A stretch of 64,000 bases of DNA from Coriaria nepalensis (lineage: Eukaryota; Streptophyta; Magnoliopsida; Cucurbitales; Coriariaceae). Location of the stretch: NCBI GenBank assembly GCA_027186245.1, contig CP114498.1, positions 6,703,501 through 6,767,500 of the forward strand, read 5' to 3'. The notes under the pieces are model-generated. The model had not been told where the DNA came from, made no database searches, and saw only the letters and a list, made by a program, of their open reading frames with translations. The position numbers and the translations under genes were made by a program. Each line of letters begins with the position of its first letter. Position 1 is the stretch's first letter. Shown here one piece after another: positions 1,031-49,677 of this stretch.

Positions 1031-1065
1031 ACTGCCAGCACATATGATAATTTTTATTTTGACAG

Positions 1066-1405
1066 GCATGTTTTCTATTTAACTGAATTGAGTTCATGCT
1101 ATATTTATATGCCTCCAAAGTTTTCATTGGACTAAGATTAAAATGCAGGTCAGCTCTGAAATTATGACTATTAAAAGATTTAATTAAAATGAATCATGGT
1201 GATTGTCAACGAGTTTCTCCCTCCCTAAATGTGTATTTTGTGACAAATTAATTTTATGATACTAATTATTCTAATTATTATTCTAATTGTTATAATTACA
1301 TTTAAAAAGAGTATTAATATATGTTTAAACTTTGCAGCCCGTGCCCCTTTTGGCATTATTCTTACCATAACCAAGGACTTAACCAGACATTGAGGGGGAT
1401 CGCAT
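1066..1405 (+). pseudogene. Relic of an aromatic prenyltransferase gene (exons 5 and 6)
   Basis: Two blocks match consecutive exons of the intact prenyltransferase genes downstream. 1066-1148 follows a CAG acceptor and ends at a GTCAG donor, as exon 5 does in both intact copies, but it has small indels and in-frame stops. 1338-1405 follows TTTGCAG and starts CCCG; it ends with the codons for the end of the KDxPDIEGDR motif, followed by GTAAG exactly as in exon 6. Intron sequence after the second block (about 1424-1465, CTGCTGGTCTCACCATTT) also resembles the intron after exon 6 of copy 1. No exons 1-4 or 7-10 were found nearby, so this is a truncated, dead copy of the cluster. Confidence 0.82.
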
Positions 1406-1699
1406 GTAAGACTTGGACATGCATGTCGGCTGCTGGTCTCACCATTTGCTTCCTCAAATCTCTATCATGCACGCATGACTCCGTCCTATAAATTGAATCA
1501 ATCATTTTTATGGTCTTGAAAGTAAAAACTAATAATTGTGCACTACCTTGGATATATATTTTATCTTTATTAATATTTTTAATTTAATACTATTCTTATA
1601 CCGCAAGCATGATGCATGCACGAAAGCTATTGAACCTCTAAGACATACATCATTACTTAGCTCAACATAAATAACAATTTGCTTTTTTTTCTTTGGCAG

Positions 1700-1768
1700 G
1701 GGCGCTTTCTATTTAATTCTGGTTTATATTATGCGTCCAGATTTCCATCGGTCGACCATGAAATTGTG
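1700..1768 (+). pseudogene. Second prenyltransferase exon 5 relic
   Basis: After the acceptor TTTGGCAG, this block repeats exon 5 of the intact prenyltransferase genes: it codes for a degraded version of the segment ARFLxNxGxYYASR, followed by a decayed match to the exon end. It lies about 300 bases after the exon 6 relic, so it belongs to a different decayed copy or a local duplication. No other exons of this copy were found. Confidence 0.7.
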
Positions 1769-1854
1769 ATTAATAAATAATTATTCATCATCATTATCAT
1801 TAAAGTTTATTCATATTATTTTCAGAATCGACTATATAAATGTTGATTCTCTAA

Positions 1855-4150
1855 ATGACGCGATCTTTCAATATATTATCACATAATCATATAAGATCTA
1901 GGATGTTTTCTTTCACCACCTATATCCAAGTTTTCAATGGTCTATCCCTCCATCTACACCATTTACTTACTTGCCAATTTAAATTTTTTCGAATTAAGGC
2001 CGTATTTGATCTACTCTGCACATGGCCAAATTATGTTAGTCGTTTCTCTTTAAATTTGTCATCTGTAAGGACTATATCTAGATAACTCATAATCTTGTCA
2101 TTTCTAATTTTATCCTTATATGTTTTACCACACATCTATCCTAATGTATACATGTCTGCTACTGTCATCTTATGCATATGTTGTCCCATAATGGCTCAAT
2201 ACTCCGGACCATAAAGCAAAACAGATCGAACGATCATCTTATAACATTTTCCTTTCAACATCACGGGGGTCCTTCTATCGTAAGACTCTTGATATCATCC
2301 TCTATTTCATTCAACATATTTTAATCATATGGTCTATATACTCTCGAATACCCCTAGTCTTTTGTATAATAGCTATTAAATAACGAAAAGCTTCAAACTA
2401 TAGGACCTCCCTACCATGATCTCAATTGGATTACCTCTCATTCAAAATTCATGATCAAAATTACAAACTAGATATTCTATTTTCGAGCAATTACTTCTAA
2501 AACTGTTATTCTCTAGAGCCTCACATCACCTATCTAGTTTTCGACTTACGCATTCTCTAATTTCATAAAGTAAGACGATATCATCTGCAACAAAATATAT
2601 AAAGTAGCATCCTGAATATGTTTCGTCATCTTATCCATAACCAAAGTAAAGAGGCATGGACTTAAAGTCGGCCCTTGATGAAGTCCTACTATAATTGGGA
2701 TTCACCATATATCTCATCTACTGACAGAACACTGCATACAAATTCCTTAATAACTCTATCATTGAAACATATTCTTCCTTTCAAGTATCCACTAGATTAA
2801 TTCCTTAATAACTCTATCATAAGTTTTCTTTAACTCAATAAATACCATATGCAATCTCTTTTTGTTTTTCTCTATATTTTTCTATCATTTGTCTAATCAA
2901 GAAGATTACTTTTTTTGTAGATCTATCTAGCATAAACCAAATTGATTCTTTGATATGGTGGTGAGATTCCTAAGTCTCTGCTCTTTAACCCTTTCTGAGA
3001 GTTTCATTATATAACTTATAAGCATTATCCCTCTATAGTTTAAACAATCTTGGATGTCATCTTTATTCTTATAAATTGGTACCACAATATTATTTCTCTA
3101 TGATTCTGGCATTTTCATGGTATCTAAAATTCTACTTAAGTTTTATATTCTCACAACATTCTAAGGCTAATTGACCATCAAATATCTTATTTCTAAGAGT
3201 CTGAGATACATCTCTTTTCAAAGTTCACCACTTAATTCTTGCTTAATATGACCTTTGTCTACTTAATTCATGCTCCTAAGATAAATATCAAATATTAATT
3301 ACCTATGTTGGATTATCAAACACTCTCCTAATATCACCTTATAAATTTTACACCTGCCTATATCTCATCTCCTAACAAGAAAGTAATAAATTTGACTTCC
3401 ATTTTTCCTACTCATAAATGTCACTAAATGATCCTCCTTCTTCTTATAATGAATTTTTACTATCCCAAAATCATAAATTAAGGTAAATTCTAAAATAAAA
3501 AGCCTCATATTGTTTGAAACTCCAAAATCTTGACCTCTATGAACTCTGTCATACCCCAACTTTATCATTACCTACATGGCTATTTAAATCACCACTTAAG
3601 AAAATCTTGTCTGAAATGAGTATTCTATTAACTAACTCTCTCAAAGTGTCTCAAAAGTCTTAATCTCATTATCTAATCCCGCTTAGAGTGCATATACACT
3701 AATAATATGTATTATCTTTTATTTTAAAGCTAAAATAATGCTCATAATCATATCCCCAAACCTTCTAACAATAACTAATGAATCCATATAAACTTTATCC
3801 ACCAATATTCTCACCCATTCATAGTTTTATCCATTTCTGAATAAAAACGTTTGAACCATTTTCCTATAGTTTTAACCATGTTCCCCTTACACTTTGTCTC
3901 TTAAAGACAAGCTATATTTATCTTCCATCCATGCATAACATTCACTAATTTTTTTGATTTACCCATCAATCATCCTATGTTCCACAAGGCTAATCTAATG
4001 TTTCTAATTCTAGTTTGAACTAGTTTCTTTACTTGTCCGCATCTAGAATGATGCGAGAATCCTTGCCTATTTAACACTACAACCAAACACCACTATAACC
4101 CGCCTTACTCATTTGACATTGCACCCAAGCGTAGATAAACTACGTCGCTT
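1855..4150 (-). mobile_element. Decayed RTE-type LINE (endonuclease and reverse transcriptase remnants)
   Basis: Read on the minus strand, the stretch resembles plant RTE-clade LINEs. Near 3900-3990 it decodes to an endonuclease N-terminus-like segment with the pattern INIACLQETK, partly broken. At about 2560-2780 it decodes to reverse-transcriptase-like pieces: a G-L-H-Q-G-like region, then S-P-LF, a VMDKMTKHIQD-like stretch, and a degraded F/V-A-D-D-I box. Stops and frameshifts occur throughout, so it cannot make protein. The 5' end is near 4.1 kb and the 3' end near 1.9-2.1 kb; exact ends and target-site duplications were not resolved. Open frames read on the + strand here are shadows. Confidence 0.72.
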
Positions 4151-5510
4151 ATAGTGGGAGACGCCCTAATATTTCGCGTTAATCTTTTTTAATTAAATTT
4201 CATACAAAGGATGTGATGAGTTCTTTTACAGTTGGATTTAATAGACCTAGCACCAGCCCTCCTCCTTTATCCGAGTTTAGGACAGTTAGATTTTAATGCT
4301 CGGTTGAAGTTATAACGAGAGCAAGAGAATGGATAAAACAGGAGAGGTTTCTTTGCTTGTTCTATAAAAATAGAATTGTCTTACTTACTTTCCAATGAAA
4401 AATTACATGGCTTAAAAGGAAAATGTAAAATGATTACAAGTACACATGCAACCGTATTTAGATCTGAACAAAACATATTAAAAGTACTTAACATCAACCA
4501 CTAATCCGGCTAGAAAAACAAACTTGCTTTTACACATTGTTTTTATAGACTTTAGCTATCAAGAGGCAAATCTATCTATAATGCATTCTAAACGTTTCCA
4601 AAACTTCAAACCAGCTTTCACATGTTTAAAATCATAAACTTAACTTATTGGCATGATCAGATACATTGTAGAATTCAAATTTTGCTTATGACTTATTCTA
4701 TAAATAAACTAGAAACGTAAGAAAAATTGAGATTAAATTTATCATAACTTGAACTAAGATAAACTAATTTCAGTTATTCAAATTGCTATAGTTTGATATT
4801 GGAGAGAACTAACTAATAGTATAGGAGTCAAACGACAATGTAATAGGAAGAACAAAAGTCAATCTTGAAGTTAGATTCAAAAAAATAAGTAATTTCTGAC
4901 GAAGACCGGCTAACTTATTGATGAGGTGAATTTTAGGCATCGGAATTTCTATGAGGTTGCGATGGTATGAGCTGAGCAATTTAATTATATTAGCCATCAT
5001 TAATTCCGGGAGCATTGTCCCGAGCAGGGTGGGATTGTGTCAGATGAATTGTGGAAGTGCTCGGACCCTTAGCTTAGGTTGGAGCAATAACGTTAAGATA
5101 AGTTCATGTATGGAAGATACAAATAAGTCATATGACTTCGCACCTAGAGTAAGGAAACAATATTCAGCTGAGAATCTACCTTAAGGTTGTGGCATACCTG
5201 ATATTAAAGCTATCAATATTTATGGCGCAAGATCCTAAGAGAGGATAGGATCTATTCAAATAATAAGCGAGAGAACGAATCATAAACAGTGGCTGACAAG
5301 AAGGAACTCAGCAGCTCAAGCCACACAAGGACGTGATTACTGGCGTTATGAGCAGATAATAACGGCTAGTGAATGATGAGCGGAAGGGAGTAGATGATGG
5401 TAATGGGGGAAAACGTACGGGCACAAATTTCAGTCAACCATATGTCTGAAGGCGGAACTAACCCCAACCAAATCCCGTGGCTGTCCGGATTGGGCGACCG
5501 GAAAAAAAGA
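4151..5510. other. Unassigned intergenic stretch with a GC-richer patch
   Basis: From about 4930 to 5510 base composition is clearly less AT-rich than the surroundings and open frames are longer, for example 77 codons at 4951-5184. I recognise no protein family, splice pattern or RNA structure. It may be part of an old transposon or a decayed gene. Confidence 0.4.
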
Positions 5511-5519
5511 GGAAAAAAA

Positions 5520-5790
5520 AAATTTTAATTAATAAATATATAATTTGTGATTTAAACTTGCAATTTAAATTTATATTGTTTAAAGATTTATAAATTTTAC
5601 TTCAATTATTTAGCTTATCAGAAGTCACGTGTTCAATCCCTTTTATTTTTATTTTTCATAGTTTTCTTCATTTTTTATTTCTTATTCAATCTCCACTAAT
5701 TTCTTTAGCAAAAAAAAAAAAAAAAATCCCCACTAATTCTATTTTAGTAATTTAATTTAATTTATTACTCTACAAATTTAATATAAAAAA
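5520..5790 (+). repeat. AT-rich repeat with a tRNA-like B-box (possible SINE relic)
   Basis: The motif CACGTGTTCAATCCC near 5626-5640 resembles a pol III B-box. The surrounding sequence resembles the segment at 15.8-16.0 kb, sharing the order TTAGCTTAT, then TCA(C/T)G(T/A)GTT(C/T)AATC, then a T-rich tail. It may be a decayed tRNA-derived SINE. The A-box here is poor. Confidence 0.35.
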
Positions 5791-5933
5791 AAAAGGTTGA
5801 GCTTAATTCTGCCTTATAAAATAAAGTTTCCGTAGAATATATAAATTTGTTATTTTTTAATCAATTGGATTAATGTATATAGTAACGTATATACATATAT
5901 TATATAGATTGCATTCTTCTAATAAAATAACGT

Positions 5934-5943
5934 GCCACGTGGC
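5934..5943 (+). promoter_or_regulatory. Perfect palindromic G-box upstream of prenyltransferase copy 1
   Basis: GCCACGTGGC is a full ten-base palindrome with a CACGTG core, the binding site type of plant bZIP and bHLH factors. It lies about 150 bases upstream of the presumed TATA box of copy 1. Copy 2 has only a partial ACGT site (GCCACGTC near 20808). Confidence 0.55.
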
Positions 5944-6083
5944 AATCACTCTTCTACATCTGCATATACATTTTAGAAGTTATAAAAGTGAAAAGTCAGC
6001 CTTTGTAATAATTAATAACATGCATTAAAATGGCTTGTTCAGTACATGAATCCGGTTTATTGCCAGGTCGTCCAAGAAAATTC

Positions 6084-6091
6084 TATTTATA
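6084..6091 (+). promoter_or_regulatory. Probable TATA box of prenyltransferase copy 1
   Basis: TATTTATA sits inside TTCTATTTATACTC, about 75 bases before the start codon. The same block occurs at the same place before copy 2 (20826-20836), while much of the surrounding upstream DNA has diverged. Conservation between paralogues is the main support. Confidence 0.6.
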
Positions 6092-6165
6092 CTCAAAATT
6101 TCGCTCGCTTGTGTAGCCAGTCGCTCATTCAACGGGCAAATACTAGGCTCTTTGAACTAGCAATC

Positions 6166-9100
6166 ATGTCTTCCTCCTCCTTAATGTTCAGAAGCATGTT
6201 CGCATCGGATAGATCAGTGCTTGTCACCTCCCCTACCAGAATGCCCATTAAATATAGGTCACTATCCACAATACGCAAATATTTTTCTTCATATGGTCTG
6301 CACTCTGCAGGTTGGACATACAACGATACCGGAAGTTACTTAAAATTATCATCAATTTTGGGGCGACAGATTAGAGTTAATTCCAGTCAGGTCTCTCTCT
6401 TCTCTCTCTCTCCCCCTCAAACACACGATTAGCACATAATTGATAGTGTTTCTTACTCTCTGCTACTGATAGTAATTATTGTTTGGGACAAAATCTAATT
6501 TAGTACTTCAACTTCAAACTGAATTATTATGATATAAATTATTGTTATACTATCTAGATTACGTTTTTTTATCCTAGCCAGCACCTCCACGTGGGGGTCT
6601 GCCACGGTAACTCCCTCTCTCTCTCTCTCAAAAAAAATTAGATCGATTTACCTGCTTGCATTTGTTTTTATCTAAAATGGAGAGATTATTATGGCGGTGG
6701 TTGGCCAAAGCCGAGAGGTAGTGGTGATATTTTGGATCTTGTTAGGCACATGATATTTAAAATATTTTTGGCTGCAGTAATTAATTAGCTGTGGTAGAAA
6801 GGTTGATAGATGCGGTGGTAAATATGTGTAGAGATAAAATTTTGATTCAAAATATGAAGTAGGTTCAAAAATGCAAAAACAAAATATAGGTATGAAAAAA
6901 ATAATAAAGATTAAAATGGGGTCAATTTATTACTTTTGTCTAAAAAAACTGAAAAATTCATATTTACATGTGTGACGGTATGATAGGTACTGCTGTGTTA
7001 AAAACATGCCGGATCAGCTTCTTGCTTGTTCGAAGAAGTAACATGAAGGATCACAATTTCAAAATTAGACAATAAATGGATTAATTAGTATTTGTCGGAG
7101 TTGATATAATAACAAATTATGAATTACATAAAGATGAAAAACCCTCTTATTTTATACAAATTACAAAATACTCAAGACTCTTTTTTGTTGGCGCTAGGAA
7201 ATATAGATACGACTGATGTGTCCTACATGACTAAGTATTTATTTTGAAAATATAGTAATTTAAAAAAAAAAAAAAATTATATATATATATATATATATAT
7301 AGCGGTTACATAATTAATGAATAGAAAATAGTATATGAGTCAAAGTTAGACAAACATTTGATAAAGCGGAATGAGTTGGTATCCAAATTATCCACTTAAT
7401 TGATGAGTTGATAAGTGATAGTATGAATAGTTATCAACTCGTCTCATCATTATAAACTTTGATTTTAAACTAAAAGTTTAAAAAAAAAAATTTAATGAAT
7501 TACTATGTAACGTGTATTCAACTGTTCATTATTAAATATGAACTATGTACCAAATTACCATACAAAAATAATGGATAAAATTATATTTACCTCTTCTTCA
7601 AATATGTTTGTTTGTTTGTTTTTTGTTTGTTTTTTTTTTTTTTTTTTGGGTCAAGAATCTTGATTGTCTCTCTCAAATGTATCTGAATCATATCCAAACA
7701 TATCCGAGGCAATAACATATTAATTGGTTCGAGATACATATCGGGTACTTATTTTCACATATCTTTAACGAACCAACGTCGTATCCTTACCGATACTACA
7801 TACGTCACGGAGTTTGGTGTATTTGTGTTTCGAAAGCACTTAACGGTATGCTACTCTTGCCAAAACACGAGTGCAACCAAAAAGGGCTTTTAAAACTTAT
7901 GAAAACACCACTAGCACACTTGAATCATAGTACCATACTATAAGGGGCATAAAGTCTTGTATTTTGTTCTTTGGTTTGGTCGTTTGTTTCTCGCTTTTAG
8001 GTGTTATGTGTTTTCTCATTGTTTCTTTTCCACCCCTCTTTTTCTTTAATGAATTCATCAATATACTTTACAAGTTGTTAAACCTACTGTTAGCAACTGA
8101 TTTCCAGTCAACTGTATTCATTCAACTAGTTTTCTGATAAGCTTTCGTTAGTTAGTTTAGTTTCTGATTAGTTAAATTAACTAGCTCTAGTTTAGCTTTA
8201 GTTGAGTTAAGTACGTGTATAAACTTACATTGTAACCTCAGTTAAAGTTTAATAAAAAAGTTCAGGTGTTAATCATCGTTTTACACAAGTTATATATGTA
8301 ACTGACTTGAATTAGCAAATAATCATTTTGATGCCAGGCCCACATTCAAGTAGATCACTCCGAAAGATCTGATTCTAAGTTGGAAATATTTTCACGCTAC
8401 GCTGATGCAATCTGGACATTTATGAGGCCTTACGCCCTACTATATTATGCTTGGGCATCACTGTAAGCTATTACATGCCTGAAAATAGATTATAGAAATT
8501 CATGTGGTACCATTTTGATAGATTCCTCACTTGTAACAAATGTCAACGTACGTGGTTTGAGTTTTATTTAATTTCCTACAGGTCTATCTCAGCAAGAGTT
8601 TGGATCGAAAATCCGCATCTGATAAAGTGGTCAACACCGGTTGTGGCTATTATAATGGGCGCGATTACTTTGTGGCTTAGTTTTGGTTTTGTAAATGGCC
8701 TCAATCAAATTTATGATCTTGATATCGATAGGTATACGTATGACGTGCTAACAATATTTTTTAGAAGTATTATATTTAATGCATGTAACTAATAATGAAT
8801 GAGCCTGCTTGCATTGAATCTGCAGGATAAACAAACCTAACTTGCCTCTAGCTTCAGGGGCTATTTCCCTCAAGTCTATGTGGGGTATAATAATATCATT
8901 TGGAGTTGGTGGGCTATTGACTGTTGTGCTTAACAAGATGGGACCAGTGGTTACTTCTATCTATTGCCTCTATCTTTTAGCATTGGGCGTCTTCTATTCA
9001 GCTCCTCCATTTAGATTTAAGAGAAACCCTGTTACAGCTATGCTCTCTATAGTTTCGGTAAGAGAAGCAGATTCTTACACGTCTAAGACATACGATATTA

Positions 9101-10450
9101 CTTGGCTCATGACATTCGGTTTTGGCAGGCACGTTTTCTATACAACTTTGGTGTATATTATGCCACTAGAGTTTCCATTGGACTACCATTTGAATGGAGG
9201 TCAGTTATGACTATTGAAGTAATTGTCATCCTAGATAATTTTTTTTTTTGTGACTAGTTAGTTAAAATAATAAATTCCACTTATTATTATTATTATAATT
9301 GTTTTTTTAATATATATAATTAAACTTTGCAGCCCAGCTTTTGCCTTCATGGTTATGATGCCAATGGTAAATTCACTAGTTTGTGCTATATGCAAAGACA
9401 TACCGGACATTGAGGGGGATCGCATGTAAGATATTATAGTGTTCTATGATCACTTCGACATGTAGTTTACTGGTCTGACCATTTTGGTTTTCAAATCTGT
9501 ATTATGTTATATTATATAGTGATTGTTAATGTCATAAAGGTAACTCAATTAAAATTTTATTAGGTATGGGATATCCACTTTAGCATCGAAAGTTGGAGGT
9601 AGAAATGTTGCATTCATTGGCACTGGAATCCAACTCCTTGCTTATGTTGCTGCTATTTGCGCTTCCATTGTCATGCCTCAGGTCAGGAGTCTCCTAAGTT
9701 GAATGCTCATGTTAAGTTCTTCCTACATAATATTGTTTGAACTTCATCATATCTATTCTAATCGATCTCTTCTCTCTAATAGAATTGGAATGTTGTTGTA
9801 CAAAGCACGTGTACAGTAGTATTGTTTGAAGCTCATCCAAACTTCCATTTGGGCCAGCAATAGCAAAGTCAAAATATATTTTCTTAAAAAAAACCCTAAA
9901 ATTTGTTTAACAATATTTTACAAGAACACAATATGTATCACATAGGTGACTGCTATATGTATTCTACATCTCCCATGTTCATGTATGGAATTGAACTTGA
10001 AAATTAAGTATATATCTAATTATTACCTCATCATATGCAGGCTTTCAAGCGTAGCATCATGATACCCACTCATACTATTCTGGCTTTACTCTTGATATAC
10101 CAGGTTTCTATATGTTCTTCTACCATCATTAACACGCTGGATTTTTGTTTTTTTTTTTTGGCCTCTCGATGCTTTTGCATTAATGCGGTTTTGGTTTATT
10201 ATCAGACATGGATTATGGAGAAAGCAAAATATTCCAAGGTAAAGGAAAAATGGTCCTAAATATTAACTTCTTTTTTTTTTTTAATGTTTGGAAATTTAAA
10301 AAATACTCAAAAACAGCGTTTAATAACATAATAGATGATACGAATTTTTTTTTTTTTTTTTTTTTTGTTTTGCAGGAAGCAAGTACGGCCTTCTATATGG
10401 TTTTATGGAAACTCGCAGGTGCTGAGTGCATAATATTTCCTTTTATATAG
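6166..10450 (+). CDS. Plastid membrane-bound aromatic prenyltransferase, copy 1 (UbiA family, 394 aa)
   Basis: Predicted to move a prenyl chain from a prenyl diphosphate to an aromatic acceptor in plastid membranes, with Mg2+. Ten exons: 6166-6390, 8338-8462, 8582-8731, 8826-9057, 9129-9199, 9333-9425, 9564-9681, 10041-10103, 10206-10238, 10376-10450. All introns are GT-AG and the phases join without a stop. Residues 1-75 are Ser/Thr/Arg-rich and look like a plastid transit peptide. The first Asp-rich motif is NQIYDLDIDR, followed by INKPNLPLASG; the second is KDIPDIEGDR. Several hydrophobic helices follow and the protein ends WKLAGAECIIFPFI, like the homogentisate phytyltransferase family (about 390-400 aa). 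The family also includes specialised flavonoid, coumarin, phloroglucinol and xanthone enzymes. The diverged sequence and tandem copies suggest specialised metabolism rather than tocopherol synthesis; the acceptor cannot be read from sequence. Intron 1 is long (1.95 kb). Confidence 0.92.
7279..7300. repeat. (TA)n microsatellite in intron 1 of copy 1
   Basis: A run of alternating T and A follows a poly-A tract. It is a simple repeat in the enlarged first intron. Confidence 0.85.
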
Positions 10451-12743: not shown

Positions 12744-12960
12744 GATGTTAGAATTTTCCGGACACATGGCAGAAGGTGGTCGGATAAAAAATTCAAATTA
12801 AATGCAAGTCGGTTAATAATATTAAATTGATCAATTAAATCAAATAATTAATATGACCGATTAGAGGTTTATTTTAACCAAATAGTAGTTAATTCTGATC
12901 GACCGAATGTGATTTAATTTAAGTAAAATTGGTTAAGCATAAGATTTATAATAAGGTGAA

Positions 12961-13196
12961 GAAATCATTTGAATTGATGATGTGGCATAAAGAATAGTCA
13001 TAGATCACTTACACAAGGATCATGGGAGGTGCAATCTTGACCGTCCGAAGAAAAGACAACCATCTCCACCCAATAATGAAATCACTTGGATTGATGACGT
13101 AGTGTAAAGAGTAGCCATAGATCACTTACATAAGGATCATGAGAAGTGTAATCTTGATCATTTGAAGAAAAGACAAAACTATCTCCACCCAACCAA
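12961..13196. repeat. Tandem duplication of a unit of about 117 bp
   Basis: Unit 1 (12961-13077) and unit 2 (13078-about 13196) share the order ATTGATGA(T/C)G, TAGATCACTTACA, AAGGATCATG, AATCTTGA, GAAGAAAAGACAA, CATCTCCACCCAA with scattered substitutions. It lies in a segment (12745 onward, starting TGTTAGAATTTTCCGG) that may be an old LTR; I found no clear 3' end. Confidence 0.8.
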
Positions 13197-13199
13197 GGA

Positions 13200-15800
13200 A
13201 TGAAGGGGTTTGGTTGAAACTTAAGAAAAAATGGAACATTTCGACCGAGATGCTCTCCTAGTCAAAAGAAACAAACAAATTTTCCCCTAAAAAGTGGATT
13301 AAAGTTGCCCACCCTCAACCAACACAACATTAAGCCAAAATTCAAAGAGTGAGGGGGAACAGATTCAGCCAAAATTGTAAAAAGGGGGGGAGAGTTGGTT
13401 TCAATGAATCTAGACCGAAAGACGACAAGATTAGACCGAAAGCTAAATTAATAACCATTCAACTAAAAAGGTGGTGCGACCTATGAAGTGGGGTGAGTGG
13501 CACGATATTTGAGGATGAAGTGGATGTCGACTTCAACTTATTTAAAAGAGTCTCATCAACATATTTGCCTAAAAATAGCAAGTTTGGGTGAAGGAAAAAA
13601 TTATCCTTTTGATCACCATGGAACACAAAGCTCCGGTGAAATTCTCTCGGTCTTTTAATATTTATCTCTTTTTAATTCCTCCAGGAATTATGTATTTCCT
13701 TTTAACCATTCTTTGAAATAATTATTAGAGCACCAAATTCTTATTTGAGTGAAATCTTGATATATCGTTCACAAACAAGATGCTTTCAATCTTCATTTTC
13801 TTCTTCTAAGTCATTTATCTATTGTTTTCATAGGACTAAAATTAATTTAGATTTAATTTCTTGCCAAAGATGATCCGCCAATTTCAATTCATTTTTTTTT
13901 ATCCAGTGTTATTTACTTAGTCATTTGTTTCCATCTTGTAACCTTTAATTCTACTTTCATTTATTACCGTTTTACTTTAGTAGCAGTTAGTTCAGTCTTC
14001 ACGTTAGTATATATGTTGAAAATATAGTCGAATCTAGATTAGCATTAATCTTTTCACCTATGTAGAGTCAGATTTAATTTCCAGACTATCTATTTATTCT
14101 ATTTTATTTTATAGTATGAAAGATACTATAACTTTCTGGCACACTCAGATTTAAATCTATGAAAGCCCACGCTCGACATTTAATCCTTTTAATTTTCTGA
14201 GTTTTCCATTGACAAATTTTTCTGACGTCAACAATTAGTTTTATCAATATTCCATGGACATGATTTATTTGATTAAAGAGGTAATCATATAAATTAGATT
14301 TAAAATTGTTTAGACAAACACATAATGAGGATAATGAGACGTTGAAAATGATTGATGGATTAAATGCATGTTTGATTGAAATGGTTTGATTTTGAAGTAT
14401 GTATAAAATGATTGATGCGTACATAAGGGTTTCAAATATAGATTCTCATTATGTTGAAAGTCATAAAGATTATGCATGCACGAAGATATCATGATGAGAT
14501 CCTAGAATAATAAATTTCTTATTGATACTATTAAAACTTGTAAGCTATGTAAGAATATCTTTTATAGTATCTTCTAAAACGTTACAATGAATTTAAAATT
14601 ATTTAATCATCTATGGACACATAAGGATTAATGGTTAATTAATCGGATTATGAAAAAAAAATTCATTTATGTAGAAAGAAAACCATAAAGAAAATCGGTA
14701 GAAGGAAACCCATAACGAAAATCAATATAGTTTTAGACTATATAAAGTAATTGGGTTTAGAGATCACACTTGAAAGATTTTATCTAATTTTCTTGATTTT
14801 CAAATATCTCTCAAAACAATTTATCATTTCACTTACAAAACGATTCAAAAGGGCTATTAGAAACAAAATAAAAATAAAATGAGCCAACACGTGAGAATTA
14901 TTAATCAAAAGTTCAAAGATAGTTCAAAACATATTAAGAAGCTTACCCAAAAGTTTAGGATACTTCTATAGTAATGCAGGTTACCGTTATTTTATTAGTA
15001 AGGAAGCGAGTATTAACGTAATTTCATACTCTTTTATTTTTCAGATAAGTAAGAGGACATTTTAATTATTTATATTTTAAATTAATTCTTTTATTTATTT
15101 ATTTTTTAAATAAAAAATAGACTAATATCATTAATAAAAAAGAAAGTGTTAATTGAACTTTTAATATTTTTTTCCTCTTGCAAATAGACCCTAATTAATA
15201 TTGGTATCTGCAGGTGATGAACATGCACGATGACGTGGGGATAAGATCGTGTGAAATATTTTAAATAATAAAAAGAAAAATCAACATAACTTATTGTATA
15301 TTAGACAATGACGATCCAAGACAAATATCTGTGGGTAGGAGAGACCCTCCCATGACATTGATCTACATAGACAACGGCAAACAAGTCTGGAACTAACTGA
15401 TAATTTTGTGTATCATGTATCTATATTTATCATACCTCTTTGAAGATTTTTTCACTGTAGATCTAACTTTTTATGGAAATATATGGAACTATATAATATA
15501 ATATAATGATGCAATTATAATTTGTGTATAATGCAATTAACATTCTTGTACAATGCACGATTACACGATCTAAAACCACGTGACGCAATTTTAATACACT
15601 AAAATTTAATAAAATAACATTTAAACTTTCTTGTTCAACGCACGACTAAAAGCTATTATTTCCATATAATTATATTCAATTAAATAATATAATTATATTC
15701 AATTAAATGAGGCAGATCTAACATCATCTGAACTGTGGCCGGGAAAGAAAATAATAATATATTTTTATTAAATAAATACATAATATTTTATTTAAACGTT
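13200..15800. other. Intergenic DNA, no gene seen
   Basis: AT-rich DNA without coding exons that I can support. The small minus-strand open frames at 14104-14492 have no recognisable motif. Confidence 0.5.
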
Positions 15801-16020
15801 TAAAGAAAATATAATATAGTTCAATGGTATAAGATATTTTTTAAGTTATTCAAGTTTTTTAGCTTATTCAAAGGTTTACTTAACTCTCTTAGCTTATTCA
15901 AAGGTCATGAGTTTAATCATTCCTACTACTTTTATTTTCATTCTTGTCTATTATTTTTCAAAGAAATTAATCCCTTTTTTTCCTTTTTTTTTTTTCAATA
16001 AAATTATTTTTTTTCTCAAT
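15800..16020 (+). repeat. tRNA-like SINE relic
   Basis: TAGTTCAATGGTATAAG near 15816 resembles a pol III A-box, and AAGGTCATGAGTTTAATC near 15899 resembles a B-box. A T-rich tail follows. The piece TTAGCTTATTCAAAGGT appears twice (about 15859 and 15889), a small internal duplication. The order matches plant tRNA-derived SINEs; the related piece at 5.5-5.8 kb supports a repeat family. Confidence 0.45.
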
Positions 16021-16299
16021 TTGTTACTAAAATTTTCTACACGTTAAGTCAATCAGATTTTGACCTGGATAAACACTTTATGTTATATTATTTTTATATA
16101 ATATTAGTAAAATATTATTTATTATCATAAATAAAAATCAAATATTATTTATTATGTTTATTAATTTTATAAGAATTAATTGTATATATCATATATATAT
16201 ATATTATAATAAAGTTTAATATCTTAAATTATACAATCATGATAAAAAAAAATAATTACATATATTCTATATTTCATGGGCAATGAATATGTGAAAGAT

Positions 16300-18140
16300 A
16301 GATCCAAGAATTAATGACTGATAGATAGTGGCTACACAAATCATATCACATAATGAAGGCATTTTCAAGTATATAGACAGAAGCTTTACAACCACAATCA
16401 CAATAATAAATGGGTAGAATTTGAAAGCTCATGGAAAAGGCATGGTTTCTGTGAAAACAAGGAAAGGCATATACTGATTGCAAATGTCTTCTTCGCCCCT
16501 AACTTGAAGTATAATCTGCTAAGTGTGGGATAACTTATGGGAAACGGCTACATGTTGTTATTCAAGAAAGATCACTTCATCATACCAGATTTCAAAAAGA
16601 TTGAGGTAGCTAAAGTTCCAATTTTAAACAATAGGCTCTCAGTATGTTGGAGTCATCATGCCTTCGTATGAAATGATGACATGTCTTGGAAGTGGCACAA
16701 GCAATTTGGCCACTTTGACCTCAAAGCTATCCAGAAGCTAAGCTTGAAAGGGATGATAAAAGATTTTCCCTAAGAATTGTCTACTTGGGAAGATGAAGAA
16801 AAAGTCATTCCCAAAGAATCAAGCTTACAACGGAGTAGAAAGGCTTGAGTTGGTACACTTAGATGTTTGTGGACCAATGAGGGAAGTCTCACTGAATAGA
16901 ACTAGATATTTTATCATATTCATTAATGATATATCCAGATTCTACTAGAATTTCTTCTTAAAGGAGAAAGTTGAAGCATACAATACCTTTTTGAAGTACA
17001 AGAGCTCTGTCGAGACTCAAAGTGGTAAAAAGTTGAAGGTGCTTAGAACAGATAATGGAGTAGAGTATACTTCCCTAGAGTTCAAAGCATTCCGTGAGAA
17101 AGAATGGATTCATCACCAACTCAAAGTTCTATACACTCCATAACATAATAGAGACTCTGAAAGGAATAATACAACTATCCTACAGTATTATGAGGAGCAT
17201 AATGGCAGAGAAAAAAATGCCAAGAAGATTTTAGGCTAAGGCAGCCAACACTTCAGTATACCTGCGCAATAGGCTACCTAGCAAAGTAATTGAAGGAAAG
17301 ACTCCTTAGGAAGCTTGGTTTGCAATTAAGCCTACTGTGTCTCACTTAAGAGTATTAGGGTCAATTTAATTCTCTCATAATCCAGAACAAAGATAGACAA
17401 GCTCTTAATTAAGGTTTAGAAAAGTGATTCTGATTGGTTATAGGAGTGAGTCTAAAGCATACATAATCTTCAATCCAGCAACCAATCAAATCTCAATATG
17501 TAGAGATATTATCTTTGATGAGGAGGCAATATACAATTGGGAGGAAGAAACGGTTGAGGAAGAATTATTGGAAACTGATGTTGGAGATCAGAATGAGACT
17601 TCTCAAGTGGATTCTGATGAAGACATGGAAGTTAAACCTATCAATCCAAGGTTCAGAACTTTGGAAGAAGTTTATCAAAGATGTAATGTTGTCATGTCTG
17701 AGCCTAGATGCTATGAAAAAGTAGAAAGCAATAGGCAGTGGAATAAGGTTATGGTCGAAGAGCTTGAGATAATTAACAAGAACAAAACTTGGTCATTGGT
17801 TTACAAACCAGAAAAGAAGAAGATTATAGGGTTGAAGTAGATTTACAAACTGAAGCTTAATCCAGATAATTCTGTGAACAAATTCAAAGCAAAATTTGTA
17901 GTGAAAGGATATGCATAACAGTATAGTGTAGACTATGCAGAGACCATTGCTCCAATAGCAAGGCTGACACCATCAGGTTACTTATTGCACTAGCTGTTAG
18001 AAGAGGTTGGTTAATCTACCAACTTGATGTAAATTTTCCTTTCATGAATGGAGTTCTAATAGAAGATGTGTATGAAAGCCAACCTGAAGGGTTTGAAATT
18101 ATAGGAAAAGAAAAAAAAGGGAAAATTAAACTTCTCTATT
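16300..18140 (+). mobile_element. Decayed Ty1/Copia retrotransposon fragment (protease, integrase, RT start)
   Basis: The + strand shows remnants in Copia order. A protease-like site reads D-S-G-Y-T-N-H at 16324-16344, with Tyr where the usual Cys or Ala lies. Then come a GAG-pre-integrase segment (NLLSVG-like near 16512; W-H-K-Q-F-G-H near 16690), an integrase core, and the integrase-RT linker. The linker is still open for 138 codons at 17424-17840 (ILIGYRSESKAYIIFNP). The start of the reverse transcriptase follows (YQLDVNFPFMNGVL, then EDVYESQPEGFE, near 18018-18098). Many stops and frameshifts are present, and most of the RT and all of RNase H are missing. LTRs were not identified. It is inactive. 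Confidence 0.88.
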
Positions 18141-18306
18141 GCAAATTTGAAAATCATTAGCAATGGTTTCAAGTAGGAGTGTTCGAAGTTCATGAAACCT
18201 AAGCTAATGAGGTATGAAATGTTGAGGGTTAACTTTGTGATTGCCCATTGAATTGGTGTTGACTCTCATACCATTAGTTATAAGAAGTTTTTTGGAGTTT
18301 GTAATT

Positions 18307-18470
18307 GTTAGAATTCAAATAGTTTGAGAATGGGTTGACGAAGTCAACAACTCAATGATTATACAAGTTGACGGCTCGATGGACCAACACTTAATGGCTC
18401 GAGGCCTCGATGGCTCGATCGGGTCGACAACTGCAATTTTAATTTCTTCTAGTTCACTTGAAGAAGAAGC
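18307..18470 (+). repeat. TGGCTCGA-rich block
   Basis: The core GGCTCGA or GCCTCGA recurs four times between 18370 and 18420, after TGTTAGAATTC at 18307. The TG start and the position after the Copia fragment allow an LTR remnant, but no end or partner was found. Confidence 0.3.
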
Positions 18471-18939
18471 CAGAAACTAATTTTGAATCTTATAATAAAT
18501 ATGATCATATTAGCAAGTATGACATGAAATAAATATTTCCTAGAAGCTAGTTTCATAAGCATTAAAGGCCTGGAGCTCAAATCAAAAGTTGAAGTTCTAT
18601 TATTTATTTTAATAGTTGTACTTTTTCAGATTTTCTAAACAAATTTACTTGTCCTTGTTTTATGTGATATATGTGAAGTATGGTAATAGAAACTCATATT
18701 TAATCTTAAGGATTATAAAAGTGCATTAATTAATGTATTATTCATATACTTACATTATTTATCATCTTATATTTAATCTTTTACTTTCTCAATTAAAAAA
18801 AAAGATTTCCTACGAGTATTATCAAACTACTGTTCTTTTTTTTACTACTCTCGACCCTTGCTTCAGGCTCGAATTCTCACAATACAAAGTACTAGATTCG
18901 TGGAACCTGATTTTACTGGTTCTCTTTTCACCTCTGTAA

Positions 18940-20393
18940 AAATAGGTCGGGTTTGGCACGTCAATACTCACGCTTAGACAAGATTCTTATTTCTCCCATT
19001 TTTTGCTCTACTTTTGAAGGAAGAGCGACACACTTACCAAGAGAATCTTCTGATCATTGTCCTTTGCTCTTCAACTCGACGGCTATGACTTACTCAGGTC
19101 CACGCTTATTTAGATTCCAACGTATGTGGACCAACCATACCTCTTACTTGGATCTTGTTCGTAGTGCATGGAATTCTACCGTTCTTGATCCCTTGGTCCG
19201 CCTTAGTATTAATATCATGCAGACTCGACATGCATTGAAAGCTTGGAGTAAAGAATTTTTTTGGCAATATTTTCATTGAATTAGATACATGGAGGGATAA
19301 GGTGGAGGCTCTTGACTCCGTCTTGCAAAACCACTGGTTGGATTCTATTGCAGAAGACCTTAAGGTAGCAAACAAAAATCGGTCTCGCTGTTTGTTTAAT
19401 GAAGAAATGTACTGGAAACAGAAGTCCTCGGAAAAATGGCTTCAAGAAGGTGACAAAAACACTCTTTTCTTTCATGCTTCTATCAAAGATAAACACAAGC
19501 GTCTTAACCTTACAGTGATTACGAATGAGAGAGGAGAATCTTTATCTGACCCACACGAGTTTCACAAGGCAGCAATAGAGTTTTACAAAAATCTTTATTC
19601 GGCTAGGCACACAGACATGCAGGAGGGTTTATTAGATGTTATTATGTCGTTGATTTCTGATTTAGTAAATGAGGGGTTGATGTCCCCATTTTACGTTGGA
19701 GGAACTAAAGGAAGTTCTTAAGAGTATTGAGGTTTATAGTGCTCTTGATTTGAATTCATTTTCTTCTTCTTTTTTCAGATCTGCTTGGCCTTTGGTTCAG
19801 GAAGATGTGCTGGCAGCGGCTAATGCATTCTTAAAAGGTCAAAAACTACCGGATTCTTATACTAGCACTCTTTTAGTGTTAATTCCTAAGAAGACTTCAC
19901 CTTCTTCATTGGGTGATTTCCGTCCTATAAGTCTTTAAAATGTGTTGCGAAATCTTCTCGAAGGCTTTGGCAATAGATTATCATTAATTTTACCTTCTCT
20001 GATTTCGGTTCAGCAACATGGTTTTCTTAAGGTAAGATCAACTGTGGAGGCGGTAGGTTTAGCTCAAGAGGTAACAAGGGATTTGGGTAAGAAATTCGTG
20101 GAAGTAGCGTAGTTTGATATGTGAAGGCGTATGATAGACAAGAGTGAAATTTTTTTTCTGGTGGTTTTGAAGAAGTTTGGATTTAATGAAGCGTTTATTA
20201 CGGTGAAGAATGTGTCTCAAATGTACATTTTTATGTTCTGTTTCAAGGGATGTATAAGGGTTGTTTTAAATGTGAGAGGCGTCTGCGTCAAGGGGATCCC
20301 ATTTCCCTGCTCCTTTTCATTTTGGAGGAAGAGGTTTTGAGTAGGGCTCTTTCCAAAGCAGCGGAGGAAGGTTTTATTTTGTCTAGAAGATGC
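18940..20393 (+). mobile_element. Decayed L1-type LINE fragment (endonuclease C-terminus and reverse transcriptase)
   Basis: Blocks in order match plant L1 LINEs. The endonuclease end has RLDKILISP, THLPRESSDHCPLL (the SDH catalytic motif) and FRFQRMW at 18968-19130. Next is the linker QKSSEKWLQEGDKNTLFFH near 19418-19475. The RT start has LLVLIPKKTSP and LGDFRPISL at 19875-19938. Another piece reads RRLRQGDPIS-LLFILEEEVL near 20277-20340. Stops and frameshifts separate the open pieces at 18953-19279, 19302-19721, 19696-19938 and 20131-20393. The YADD region and RNase H are gone. It lies directly upstream of prenyltransferase copy 2. Confidence 0.88.
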
Positions 20394-20700
20394 CTCTCAC
20401 ACCACCCTCCTCTACCACTATCACCACCCTCCTCCGCTATCATTATCTCCAACCTCCATCGCCATAAAAATTTTAAATTCTCTCTCTCACTCCCTCCCTC
20501 CCTCCCTCCCTCTCTTGCGCATTATATTTTTCATTCTTTACTTTTTTTTTTTTTTTTTTCAACCCAACTATCACCATCCACAAAAATACTATCACTTTTT
20601 CTGCCGTCGTTGACTTCTATTAAAAATCTCTCTCTCCAACAACCGGGATTGCATTACCTATTAGTTGTAAATATTTTATATAATTTTGGGAATTTATATT
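20394..20700. repeat. Pyrimidine-rich low-complexity block with (CCCT)n
   Basis: CACC/CTCC-rich sequence is followed by CTCTCTCTCACTCCCTCCCT-type repeats at about 20477-20512 and a T tract. Similar CCACCACC/CCATCG-rich pieces occur near 25030-25080 and 27660-27700. It lies between the LINE fragment and the copy 2 promoter. Confidence 0.6.
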
Positions 20701-20825
20701 AATTTTTCCCGTATATTTAAAGTAAAAGAGAAAGGTCAACTTTCATGTAATAATTGATAACATAAATTAAAAAGACAACAAATTGTTCACATGCATCCGG
20801 CTAATTGCCACGTCCTCCAGTGCTT

Positions 20826-20834
20826 CTATTTATA
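20826..20834 (+). promoter_or_regulatory. Probable TATA box of prenyltransferase copy 2
   Basis: CTATTTATA inside TTCTATTTATACTC matches the block upstream of copy 1. It lies about 80 bases before the start codon. Confidence 0.6.
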
Positions 20835-20910
20835 CTCCACTCTCCGCTTGGTTGAGTAATCAAGTGATTCATTCAACAGGAAAATATTTAGCTTCTTTGA
20901 AATAGCAATC

Positions 20911-23900
20911 ATGTCTTCCTACCTAATGTTCAGAACCATGCTCCCATCCGATAGAGTACTTGTCCTCCCTCCTACCAGAATACCCGTTAAGCCCACTACA
21001 GTTAAATCTAGTTCACTATGTACAATGCCCAGATATTGTTCTTCCTCCCGTTTGCACTCAGGTTGGACATCCAACTATCCCAGAAGTTACTTAAAATTAC
21101 CATCATCTTCTCCTCAAGAGCGACAGATCAGAGTTGATTCCAGTCAGGTTTCTCTCTCCCCTCTCTCTCTCTCTCAATTAATAGTAATTTTTCTCTCTGC
21201 TAACTACAGATATTTTTAGAACAAAATGTAATTTATTCCTTGAATTAATCGTGAACTGCAAACTATGATATATATTAGCCAATTGCATTGGCAAAACTGT
21301 GGTGTTGCCCGATATATTTCGGGAAAAAACGACAAGAAAACACAAATACAAAAAACTACAAGATCTGAAAAAAAAAAAAAAAAATACTCTCCAATACAAA
21401 ATGCTCATAATTTTGTTTCTTGGCGCTAGGAGTAATCATGTACTACGGTCCTACGGATATAGGCTGATGTATCCTACACGGGTAACCATCTATTACGGTA
21501 GTCAAGAAAAAGAAAAATAAATCTAAAGATACGGATCTTCTTAAATTATCATTCTCCTAATATAAGCAAAAGTTAGACTAACTTGTATTTTATTAATTTA
21601 TGTAATATTTATTTATCGAAGTTTTATTTCAGTAAAAAAGTTTATGTACTAACTTGAATTTAGCAATTTTGATGCCAGGACAACATTCAAGTAGATCACT
21701 CCGAAGGATCTAATTCTGTGCTGGAAAAATTTTCACGTTTAATTTATGCAAGCTGGAGATTTATCAGGCCTTACAGTCTTGTATATTTTGCATGCGGATC
21801 ACTGTAAGCTAGAACTTCATTCATATAAGAAATTAATTTAAAATTGCTTTTTTTTTTTTTAATGTCAAGAAAAAGACTAGCTTTCAAGCATCACCAAAGC
21901 AATTTACGTTATTATTGTTCAATCCATAATTAACATATTATAGAAATTATTATAGTAGCATTATTGTTAAAATGAAAAAAAAAACAAAAAAAATTGAGTG
22001 ATGTGACGATTCAATACGTTATTCCCGATTGTAACATTCATTTACCAAAAAATTAAATCCTACCTCTATAATCCTACCAATAAATTTTACGTTTTGAAAT
22101 TGTATTTTCTTTAATTTTCTCTATAGGTGTATTACAATAAGAGTTTGCACCGAAAATGCACATCTAATGAAGTGGTCAACACCGATTAAGGCTAGTATAG
22201 TGGGCTTCATTACTTTGTGGTGTTCTATCGGTTTTGTAAATGGCATCAATCAAATTTATGATCTTGAAAGTGACAAGTACGTCCTAACTTGGCCCCTTGT
22301 CTACTTCTTTAAATGTTTTAATATTATTTCATTTGTAAGAATTAGAATGAGTGTTTGACCCCTACATTGTAGTTAGAGGGATTACACACACTATGATTAT
22401 TTTAGACATTTTCAAGTAGCATTTAACGAATGAATCTGTTTGCATTGTATTTGTAGGATAAACAAACCTGACTTGCCTCTGGCTTCAGGGGACATTTCCC
22501 TTAAAACTTCATGGGTTATGGTAATATCTTTCGCAGTTGGTGGGATTTTGACAACTGTGCTAGACAGGATGAGACCAGAAGTTACTTGTATGTATTGCCT
22601 ACTTTTAATAATGGGTATCTTCTATTCAGTTCCTCCATTTAGATTGAAGAGATTTCCTGCTTCAGCTACGCTCATTATCGTTGCGGTAAAAGCTATAGAA
22701 TCTAAGCTCTAATAACAATCATAATAATTTAAAGAATTAATCACCCATCGCCGGCATATATGACAATTGTTTTTTGGCAGGCACGTTTCCTATTTACCTT
22801 TGGTGTATATTATGCCTCCAGAGTTTCCATTGGACTACCATTTGAATGGAGGTCAGTTATGAAAGAATTTCATTCTGGAGATATTTAATTTGGTGATTAT
22901 ATGTTTTCTTCATCGTCATCGTTTACGCTCATTTTCGAGGTCTGTTATACGTGACTGTGATTATATAATATTTTAAATATTTTAACTCCATACTAATAAA
23001 AAGTTAATAATAATTATTATTATTTTATTTTAATTTATTTCTACAAGCAGCGCTGATAGTTACATTGAACAATGCAAGCGTACTAATACATTTTTAAAAT
23101 TTGCAGCCCAGCTGTTGGCTTCATTATGATCATGTCAATGATGAACGCATTAGTTTGTTCCATAATCAAAGACATACCGGACATTGAGGGGGATCGCAAG
23201 TAAGATATCGTTCTATATATCACTAGGACGTGATATAGTTTACTGGTCTGACCATCTTGTTGACTAATTGCATAACATTTCATAATTAGGTATGAGGTAC
23301 ACACTTTAGCATCGAAAGTTGGAGGTAGAAATATTACATTCCTTGGCACCGGACTCCAACTCCTTTCTTATGTTGCTGCTATGTCTGCTGCTATTTTCAT
23401 GCCTCAGGTCAGCATTAGTCTCCTAAGTTCAATGCTCATATATGTCAACTTCTTCATATATAATGTTCTTTGAATCTCACCTTCTCCATCTCTTTTAGAA
23501 TTAAGATGTTATTCAATCGTTTTAATTATTGTTTCATTTATATACAGGCTTTCAGGGGTCGCATCATGATACCCGCTCATGCTACTATGGCCTTAATCTT
23601 GATATACCAGGTTTGTACATTTCATCCCATCCCCCCCTTCATTTGCATTCGCACTAATTATTATTACATCAATATATAACAATGCGGTTTTGATTTACTA
23701 TCAGGTATGGATGCTGGAAAAGGCAAACTATGCCAAGGTAAACTCTTGTGAGAAGGAAAAAAAAAAAAAAAAACTTAAACCCTAAACTTTAACACGTGTA
23801 ATTGACTTAAAAAAGAACTCTAGATATATGATACGAGCAATTTTCTTTGTGCAGGAAGCAATTGAAGCTTTCTATATGGTTTTATGGAAACTCGCTTACG

Positions 23901-23929
23901 CTGAATACATACTATTTCCTTTTATATAG
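20911..23929 (+). CDS. Plastid membrane-bound aromatic prenyltransferase, copy 2 (UbiA family, 397 aa)
   Basis: Tandem paralogue of the gene at 6166-10450. Ten exons: 20911-21147, 21679-21803, 22127-22276, 22457-22685, 22781-22851, 23107-23199, 23290-23407, 23548-23610, 23705-23737, 23855-23929. All are GT-AG and the frame is open to the TAG. Exons 2, 3 and 5-10 have exactly the same lengths as in copy 1; exon 1 is four codons longer and exon 4 one shorter. A Ser/Pro-rich transit-peptide-like start (about 79 residues) precedes the membrane domain. The Asp-rich motifs are NQIYDLESDK and KDIPDIEGDR. After the second motif copy 2 reads KYEVHTLASK where copy 1 has MYGISTLASK, an unusual change in a normally conserved stretch. 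The gene is intact, so probably functional, perhaps with altered substrate or prenyl-donor choice. The acceptor is unknown. Confidence 0.92.
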
Positions 23930-28552: not shown

Positions 28553-31592
<3,040 letters not shown>

Positions 31593-49649: not shown

Positions 49650-49677
49650 TTTTTTTTTCTGAAGCTTTTTAATCGAA

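What the first reader, a model, noticed from the sequence alone, without database searches (positions are those of the whole stretch)
1066..23929. Birth-and-death cluster of aromatic prenyltransferases: two live genes, at least two dead ones
Two intact ten-exon UbiA-type plastid prenyltransferases lie in tandem, and relics of exon 5 (twice) and exon 6 (once) lie upstream in the same orientation. Dead LINE and Copia elements separate the units. Tandem, diverging prenyltransferases outside the tocopherol pathway usually serve lineage-specific prenylated phenolics (flavonoids, coumarins, phloroglucinols, xanthones). The acceptor here is unknown, so this is the best candidate for an undescribed activity in the window.
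Basis: partly seen in the sequence, partly recalled or inferred. Interest (0 to 1): 0.8.

Follow-up and report, generated by a model that had tools for sequence, protein, structure and literature searches.

The report
Tandem pair of diverged plant prenyltransferases
A plant chromosome segment carries two intact, fast-changing copies of a plastid enzyme gene, beside fragments of dead copies, that descend from the plastoquinone enzyme but have probably switched to attaching prenyl groups to some other plant phenolic compound.

Summary
Two intact ten-exon UbiA genes (A, 394 aa; B, 397 aa) lie in tandem. The relic order 5-6-3-5 points to two dead head-to-tail units. The proteins descend from homogentisate solanesyltransferase (HST, VTE2-2; plastoquinone) but do not look like HST orthologues. 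In trees they nest within the HSTs on a long branch, near specialised prenyltransferases of Moraceae, Cannabaceae and Hypericum; their exact neighbour is unsettled. A and B keep 33 and 32 of 34 family-core columns but only 84 and 92 of 150 columns invariant in HST. They lack the RPHTIRGT signature found in 77 of 78 HSTs. A versus B dN/dS is about 0.83, not distinguishable from 1, while the core stays conserved: fast divergence with catalysis kept, or relaxed constraint. Best reading: a small birth-and-death cluster of VTE2-2-derived plastid aromatic prenyltransferases with an unknown phenolic acceptor. It is a new member of a known kind. Plant identity is unresolved (probably a rosid); expression and activity are untested.

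The parts
6166..10450 (+). gene A, ten exons (6166-6390, 8338-8462, 8582-8731, 8826-9057, 9129-9199, 9333-9425, 9564-9681, 10041-10103, 10206-10238, 10376-10450), 394 aa UbiA prenyltransferase
   Evidence: gene model; PF01040 E 1.3e-30; NQIYDLDID and KDIPDIEGD present
20911..23929 (+). gene B, ten exons (20911-21147, 21679-21803, 22127-22276, 22457-22685, 22781-22851, 23107-23199, 23290-23407, 23548-23610, 23705-23737, 23855-23929), 397 aa UbiA prenyltransferase
   Evidence: PF01040 E 1.9e-30; NQIYDLESD and KDIPDIEGD present; 259 of 390 aa identical to A
1034..1161 (+). dead unit 1: end of intron 4 and exon 5 relic (12-bp insertion)
   Evidence: gene B match 1034-1161, 75% over 128 columns, 1.2e-16; alignment
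1353..1411 (+). dead unit 1: exon 6 relic with splice donor (deletion and 1-bp insertion)
   Evidence: gene B match 1353-1411, 83%, 1.3e-9; 0 of 200 shuffles
1489..1531 (+). dead unit 2: relic of the end of exon 3 (the stretch that encodes NQxxDxxxD); not in the finding
   Evidence: B exon 3 to 1489-1523, 86%, 4e-6; gene B to 1489-1531; 0 of 200 shuffles for B3, 2 of 200 for A3
1686..1759 (+). dead unit 2: exon 5 relic
   Evidence: gene B match 1686-1759, 80%, 9e-12
1900..4250 (-). LINE reverse transcriptase relic between the dead units and gene A (limits are those of the stretch translated)
   Evidence: RVT_1 E 1.4e-10
16400..18250 (+). Copia relic between A and B (limits are those of the stretch translated)
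   Evidence: RVT_2 3.5e-11, SH3-like 2.4e-10, rve 7.5e-6 (rve below its curated cut-off)
18911..20400 (+). LINE-like relic just upstream of B
   Evidence: by eye from open frames; no Pfam match at 0.001 for three pieces
5983..6165 (+). A promoter and leader stretch homologous to that of B (B 20723-20910), with a shared CTATTTATACTC TATA-like box
   Evidence: B region matched from 5983; alignment

Best explanation
A small birth-and-death cluster of plastid membrane aromatic prenyltransferases that arose from a duplicated homogentisate solanesyltransferase (VTE2-2) gene. A and B probably bind a short prenyl diphosphate (DMAPP or GPP) through Mg2+ held by NQxxDxxxD and KDxxDxxGD, ionise it, and alkylate an activated phenolic ring other than homogentisate. 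The two copies have diverged quickly, perhaps towards different acceptors or ring positions. Shown: gene structure, intact catalytic motifs, VTE2-2 descent, loss of HST-specific residues, dead sister fragments. Inferred: plastid location, donor, acceptor, expression.
For: VTE2-2 descent: after a two-domain Morus protein (P0001, 43%), the best hits of A are mostly HSTs at 45-52%; the best hits of B are HSTs at 47-52%. Trees place A+B among the angiosperm HSTs; keeping the 22 HST-labelled rows apart from the diverged rows plus the alga is rejected, p 0.002, so the diverged set nests within HSTs (no test of A and B alone). Neighbours: Moraceae+Cannabaceae enzymes at 95/86 when the long Hypericum row is left out; the Hypericum enzyme at 98/77 when it is in. 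Retention of 150 HST-invariant columns: A 84, B 92; Moraceae, Cannabaceae and Hypericum rows listed 51-61%; HSTs at least 92%, median 100%. Family-core columns: A 33 and B 32 of 34. RPHTIRGT in 77 of 78 HSTs, in 0 of 29 diverged rows, not in A (RPYALLYY) or B (RPYSLVYF). Constraint: A and B differ at 2 of 34 core columns against 117 of 320 others, p 1e-4. No stop in either frame; 0.35% of 2000 neutral simulations stay stop-free. Known VTE2-2-derived relatives: FcPT1 of fig (PMC7028039, passages); HcPT of Hypericum, 396 aa, most similar (38%) to a poplar HST (PMC6332024, passage).
Against: No expression or activity data. Pairwise omega A versus B is 0.83 (0.91 in the mature part), not distinguishable from 1, which relaxed constraint would also give. 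The place beside other fast-evolving enzymes may partly be long-branch attraction: AU tests do not reject A+B with Cannabaceae (0.26), Moraceae (0.18), the Cucurbitaceae second copies (0.42) or the Sapindales copies (0.07). Hypericum P0190 reads RPHIMLGT and the cucurbit second copies RPHTFYGT, so loss of the full signature alone does not define the class. Replacements between A and B are not concentrated in the region reported as decisive for regioselectivity: 25 of 75 against 81 of 242. Derived residues shared by A and B are not shared with one relative above the rest (Hypericum 11 of 40, Morus_b 11 of 39, P0072 12 of 32).
Confidence: 0.72

Rival explanations
1. A and B are drifting, redundant copies: the whole cluster is on its way to death and the two open frames have survived by chance.
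For: omega 0.83 overall and 0.91 in the mature part, 2dlnL against omega=1 of 1.1 and 0.25; dead sister fragments next door; no listed transcript or protein above about 55% identity in the database (best 120 of each shown).
Against: Core columns are protected (2 of 34 differ against 117 of 320, p 1e-4; omega 0.34 in core from about 6 changes). No stop in either; 0.35% of 2000 neutral simulations stay stop-free. Only one in-frame indel in the mature part. Matched promoters with a TATA-like box. A and B branch lengths are similar (0.29-0.32), though A is longer (0.35, 0.25; 0.51, 0.40).
Confidence: 0.13
2. One or both are the plant's working plastoquinone HST, just fast-evolving.
For: Most of the best hits are HSTs, the trees put A+B within the HSTs by descent, and no other HST could be looked for in the genome (genome search not answered).
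Against: RPHTIRGT lost in both; 56% and 61% of HST-invariant columns kept against at least 92% in HSTs; long stem. Cannabis and Humulus hold proteins that align as ordinary HSTs (P0002, P0005) besides diverged copies.
Confidence: 0.07
3. VTE2-2-derived enzymes with a non-phenolic acceptor or an O-prenylation activity.
For: HST-specific residues replaced; O-prenylating and reverse-prenylating plant UbiA enzymes exist (PMC12172877, passages).
Against: Nothing specific supports it; the nearest characterised relatives make C-prenylated phenolics (partly recalled).
Confidence: 0.08

Closest known systems
Homogentisate solanesyltransferase (VTE2-2, AT3G11945 type)
   Same: UbiA family, both Asp-rich motifs, about 45-52% identity for most top hits, phylogenetic origin
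   Different: lost RPHTIRGT; 56-61% of HST-invariant columns; long branch; tandem copies
VTE2-2-derived specialised enzymes of Moraceae and Cannabaceae (FcPT1 type, HlPT2, Cannabis 2-acylphloroglucinol 4-prenyltransferase and related copies)
   Same: VTE2-2 origin, same level of HST residue loss, RPY instead of RPH in most, several copies per species; starred sister group when Hypericum is left out
   Different: only 34-46% identity in the listed alignments; A and B outside the Moraceae+Cannabaceae clade in the best tree; no acceptor known
Hypericum aromatic prenyltransferases (HcPT, xanthone type, by paper; P0190 by sequence)
   Same: 396 and 416 aa, HcPT most similar to an HST; P0190 groups with A+B at 98/77; shares 11 of 40 derived A=B residues, no more than some Morus and Cannabis rows
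   Different: very long branch; 36% identity of P0190 to B; reads RPHIMLGT; HcPT's own sequence was not compared

Membership tests
UbiA prenyltransferase family (homogentisate type) | PF01040 above gathering score | tested here: met
   106.9 and 106.4 bits against 34.2
UbiA prenyltransferase family (homogentisate type) | NQxxDxxxD and KDxxDxxGD | tested here: met
   NQIYDLDID / NQIYDLESD and KDIPDIEGD in both
UbiA prenyltransferase family (homogentisate type) | plastid transit peptide and up to nine membrane helices | tested here: inconclusive
   N-terminal 75 aa rich in S/T (23 and 21), 10 and 11 R/K, 2 D/E; several hydrophobic stretches by hydropathy; no dedicated predictor run
Homogentisate solanesyltransferase (VTE2-2 orthologue) | RPHTIRGT signature shared by HSTs (derived here) | tested here: not met
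   77 of 78 HST rows have it; A RPYALLYY, B RPYSLVYF
Homogentisate solanesyltransferase (VTE2-2 orthologue) | HST-like conservation and branch length | tested here: not met
   84 and 92 of 150 invariant columns against 0.92-1.0 in HSTs; stem 0.63 and 0.70 where most HST end branches are 0.02-0.4
Homogentisate solanesyltransferase (VTE2-2 orthologue) | homogentisate plus solanesyl diphosphate activity | not testable with these tools
   needs assay
VTE2-2-derived specialised aromatic prenyltransferases | nested in the VTE2-2 clade, diverged from HST | tested here: met
   nesting; divergence
VTE2-2-derived specialised aromatic prenyltransferases | exon structure of VTE2-2 | not tested
   PMC7028039 reports a conserved VTE2-2 exon structure (passage); exon lengths were not available to compare
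VTE2-2-derived specialised aromatic prenyltransferases | prenylation of a phenolic acceptor | not testable with these tools
   needs assay

The most novel reading that the evidence does not exclude
A and B represent a separate recruitment of VTE2-2 into specialised metabolism, in a rosid lineage with no characterised aromatic prenyltransferase, with an undescribed acceptor and the two copies already split into different specificities under diversifying selection.
Probability: 0.35. Interest if true: 0.55.

Novelty: new member of a known kind. Interest (0 to 1): 0.36.

Why it matters
VTE2-2-derived enzymes make cannabinoid, hop bitter-acid, furanocoumarin and xanthone precursors in a few families (partly recalled; fig and Hypericum). 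A further pair with dead neighbours would show how a plastoquinone gene is turned into a defence-compound enzyme, and would give two candidates for a prenylation step in a plant whose identity and chemistry are not known here.

Tried and rejected
The species was sought by one search with the neighbouring SPL gene and two trees, 51 and 31 rows. It is probably a rosid (a 40-row set at 96/94), on a very long branch. The second tree put it in a starred 12-row set whose members were not printed. AU tests by order: Malpighiales 0.051, Rosales 0.14, Fagales 0.25, Cucurbitales 0.32, Celastrales 0.11, Oxalidales 0.18, Ericales 0.052, Vitales 0.046, Malvales 0.02, Saxifragales 0.011, Sapindales 0.008; Fabales was already its neighbour at 43/61. 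The order is left open and I do not claim Hypericaceae or Rosales.

Rooting on cyanobacterial and Asteraceae rows was set aside as distorted by long branches; searches use algae or a conifer.

Enrichment of A-B replacements in the regioselectivity region was tested and not found. Rfam found nothing in the window. Paper steps that led nowhere: searches (0 papers), 42 and 54, and passages of a Calophyllum transcriptome paper (PMC4986372).

Full report
WHAT IS THERE. Genes A and B each have ten exons with canonical junctions and open reading frames of 394 and 397 aa. Their exon lengths agree except exon 1 (225 and 237) and exon 4 (232 and 229). Both hit Pfam UbiA at about 1e-30 and carry NQxxDxxxD and KDxxDxxGD. 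By sequence, B matches three distinct solved chains at E up to 1: an archaeal digeranylgeranylglyceryl phosphate synthase (3.5e-8) and two chlorophyll a synthases (about 3e-5) (A was not searched). The N-terminal 75 residues have 23 and 21 S/T, 10 and 11 R/K and 2 D/E, as expected for a plastid transit peptide (inference). The two genes share about 180 bp of upstream sequence with a common TATA-like box.

RELICS. Of 20 exon queries, blastn over 64 kb found relics only between 1108 and 1759 at E<1e-3 (from 1034 at gene level): exon 5 twice, exon 6 once, and the end of exon 3 once, all + strand. In 200 dinucleotide shuffles of window 1-6000 none reached the scores of A5, B5, A6, B6 or B3; A3 was reached in 2 of 200, B1 in 3 and A4 in 6, and the last two score no more than the 95% level of the best of all exons (29.2), so they are not claimed. 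All four relics score higher with B than with A. The order exon 5, exon 6, exon 3, exon 5 needs two head-to-tail copies or an internal duplication or rearrangement; I favour two copies. Each relic except the short exon 3 piece shows insertions or deletions within the exon against B.

TRANSPOSONS. A LINE relic on the minus strand lies between the dead units and A. Copia pieces lie between A and B. The LINE-like relic upstream of B is my reading of open frames, not supported by Pfam at 0.001.

DESCENT. Two protein searches found 393 and 182 proteins at E<=0.001, the best 120 of each listed. A's best hit is a two-domain Morus notabilis protein (P0001, 43%); the next are mostly HSTs at 45-52%. B's best hits are HSTs at 47-52%. 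No listed relative is above about 55%. Four trees were built from chosen rows: 47 rows (set aside for rooting), 160 rows, 43 rows and 43 rows without Hypericum. In some searches, A and B are sisters (100) among the angiosperm HSTs on a long stem (0.81, 0.63, 0.70). With Hypericum P0190 in, A+B join it at 98/77 and the whole specialised group is 87/70. Without it, A+B are sister to Moraceae+Cannabaceae at 95/86, starred. AU tests leave other placements open: Cannabaceae 0.26, Moraceae 0.18 and Cucurbitaceae second copies 0.42; Sapindales copies 0.07 and Moraceae+Cannabaceae without Hypericum 0.16. Holding the 22 rows labelled HST (one diverged Cucumis copy among them) apart from the alga and the diverged rows is rejected at 0.002. 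That shows that the diverged rows as a set nest within the HSTs; it does not test A and B alone and does not speak against HST function.

RESIDUES. From the 160 rows, 32 (algal-like, very diverged or partial) were dropped and 128 aligned; 31 were set aside as diverged copies by hand, and 78 of the 95 others are over 340 aa and serve as the HST set. Of 150 columns at least 97% conserved in HST, A keeps 84 and B 92. The same count gives 0.51-0.61 for the Moraceae, Cannabaceae and Hypericum rows listed, 0.68-0.72 for Sapindales copies and 0.79-0.82 for Cucurbitaceae second copies (which stopped before the last rows); HSTs are 0.92-1.0, median 1.0. Of 34 columns conserved in HSTs and diverged copies alike, A keeps 33 and B 32. 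RPHTIRGT occurs in 77 of 78 HSTs, 14 of 17 short other rows and 27 of 32 dropped rows, and in 0 of 29 diverged rows listed. That it touches the acceptor is inference from its place about 50 residues before motif 1; the stretch from 55 residues upstream to 10 downstream of motif 1 is reported as most influential for regioselectivity (PMC12172877, passage).

RATE. A and B are identical at 259 of 390. NG86 dS is 0.245, dN 0.199, ratio 0.81; in the mature part 0.89, bootstrap 0.63-1.33. ML omega is 0.83, and 0.91 for the mature part, not different from 1. By column class: family core 0.34 (about 6 changes), HST-invariant non-core 1.22, HST-variable 0.66. So the shared catalytic core is held, while the constraints particular to HST are no longer visible. 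Of 2000 neutral simulations with 200 substitutions in the mature part of A, 0.35% stay free of stops. Diversifying selection is one reading; relaxed constraint on the rest of the protein is the other. Pairwise data cannot separate them.

LITERATURE. FcPT1 of fig and other Moraceae and Cannabaceae enzymes lie near VTE2-2 by tree, FcPT1 also by exon structure (PMC7028039, passages). HcPT of Hypericum is 396 aa and most similar (38%) to a poplar HST (PMC6332024, one passage). Hypericum reverse and cyclising enzymes show how varied this family is (PMC12172877 and PMC11133429, passages). Only 4 papers in the held library contain both 'VTE2-2' and 'prenyltransferase' (listing). None of the titles and abstract starts listed visibly describes this locus, but the species is unknown, so a published description cannot be excluded.

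VERDICT. An ordinary but good candidate: new members of the known kind 'VTE2-2-derived specialised aromatic prenyltransferase', with visible birth and death. Acceptor, expression and species remain open.

Noticed in passing
window 28553-31592 (+): Malate dehydrogenase gene; exons joined by eye give a 332 aa frame without stops (Ldh_1_N and Ldh_1_C).
   Followed up: partly
window about 35830-37540 (-): SBP-box (SPL7-like) transcription factor on a very long branch in the trees.
   Followed up: partly
window 45660-46980 (+): Matrixin-like metalloprotease relic, by eye: one in-frame stop, and the last part of the gene separated by roughly 0.7 kb of unrelated sequence (frames).
   Followed up: no
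window about 49160-49650 (-): PHD_pln zinc finger protein.
   Followed up: partly
window 53200-53350: About three tandem copies of a unit of roughly 50 bp inside a stretch that looks, by eye, like a reversed Copia relic; a second such stretch lies at about 57.4-59.9 kb.
   Followed up: no
proteins P0007, P0008, P0021, P0023, P0026, P0028: Cucurbitaceae (Cucumis, Benincasa, Momordica, Cucurbita) carry a second, diverged HST-like copy with RPHTFYGT and about 80% of HST-invariant columns.
   Followed up: partly
proteins P0162, P0165, P0189, P0193, P0199, P0201: Sapindaceae (Xanthoceras, Acer, Dipteronia) carry VTE2-2-derived diverged copies; P0162, P0165 and P0189 read RPFSLYGN, P0193 RPYSLYGN; P0162 and P0189 have adjacent Xanthoceras locus numbers. 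None bears a name that states a function.
   Followed up: partly
protein P0001 (Morus notabilis LOC112093398): A 637 aa partial gene model holding two prenyltransferase domains, probably two tandem genes merged by annotation.
   Followed up: no
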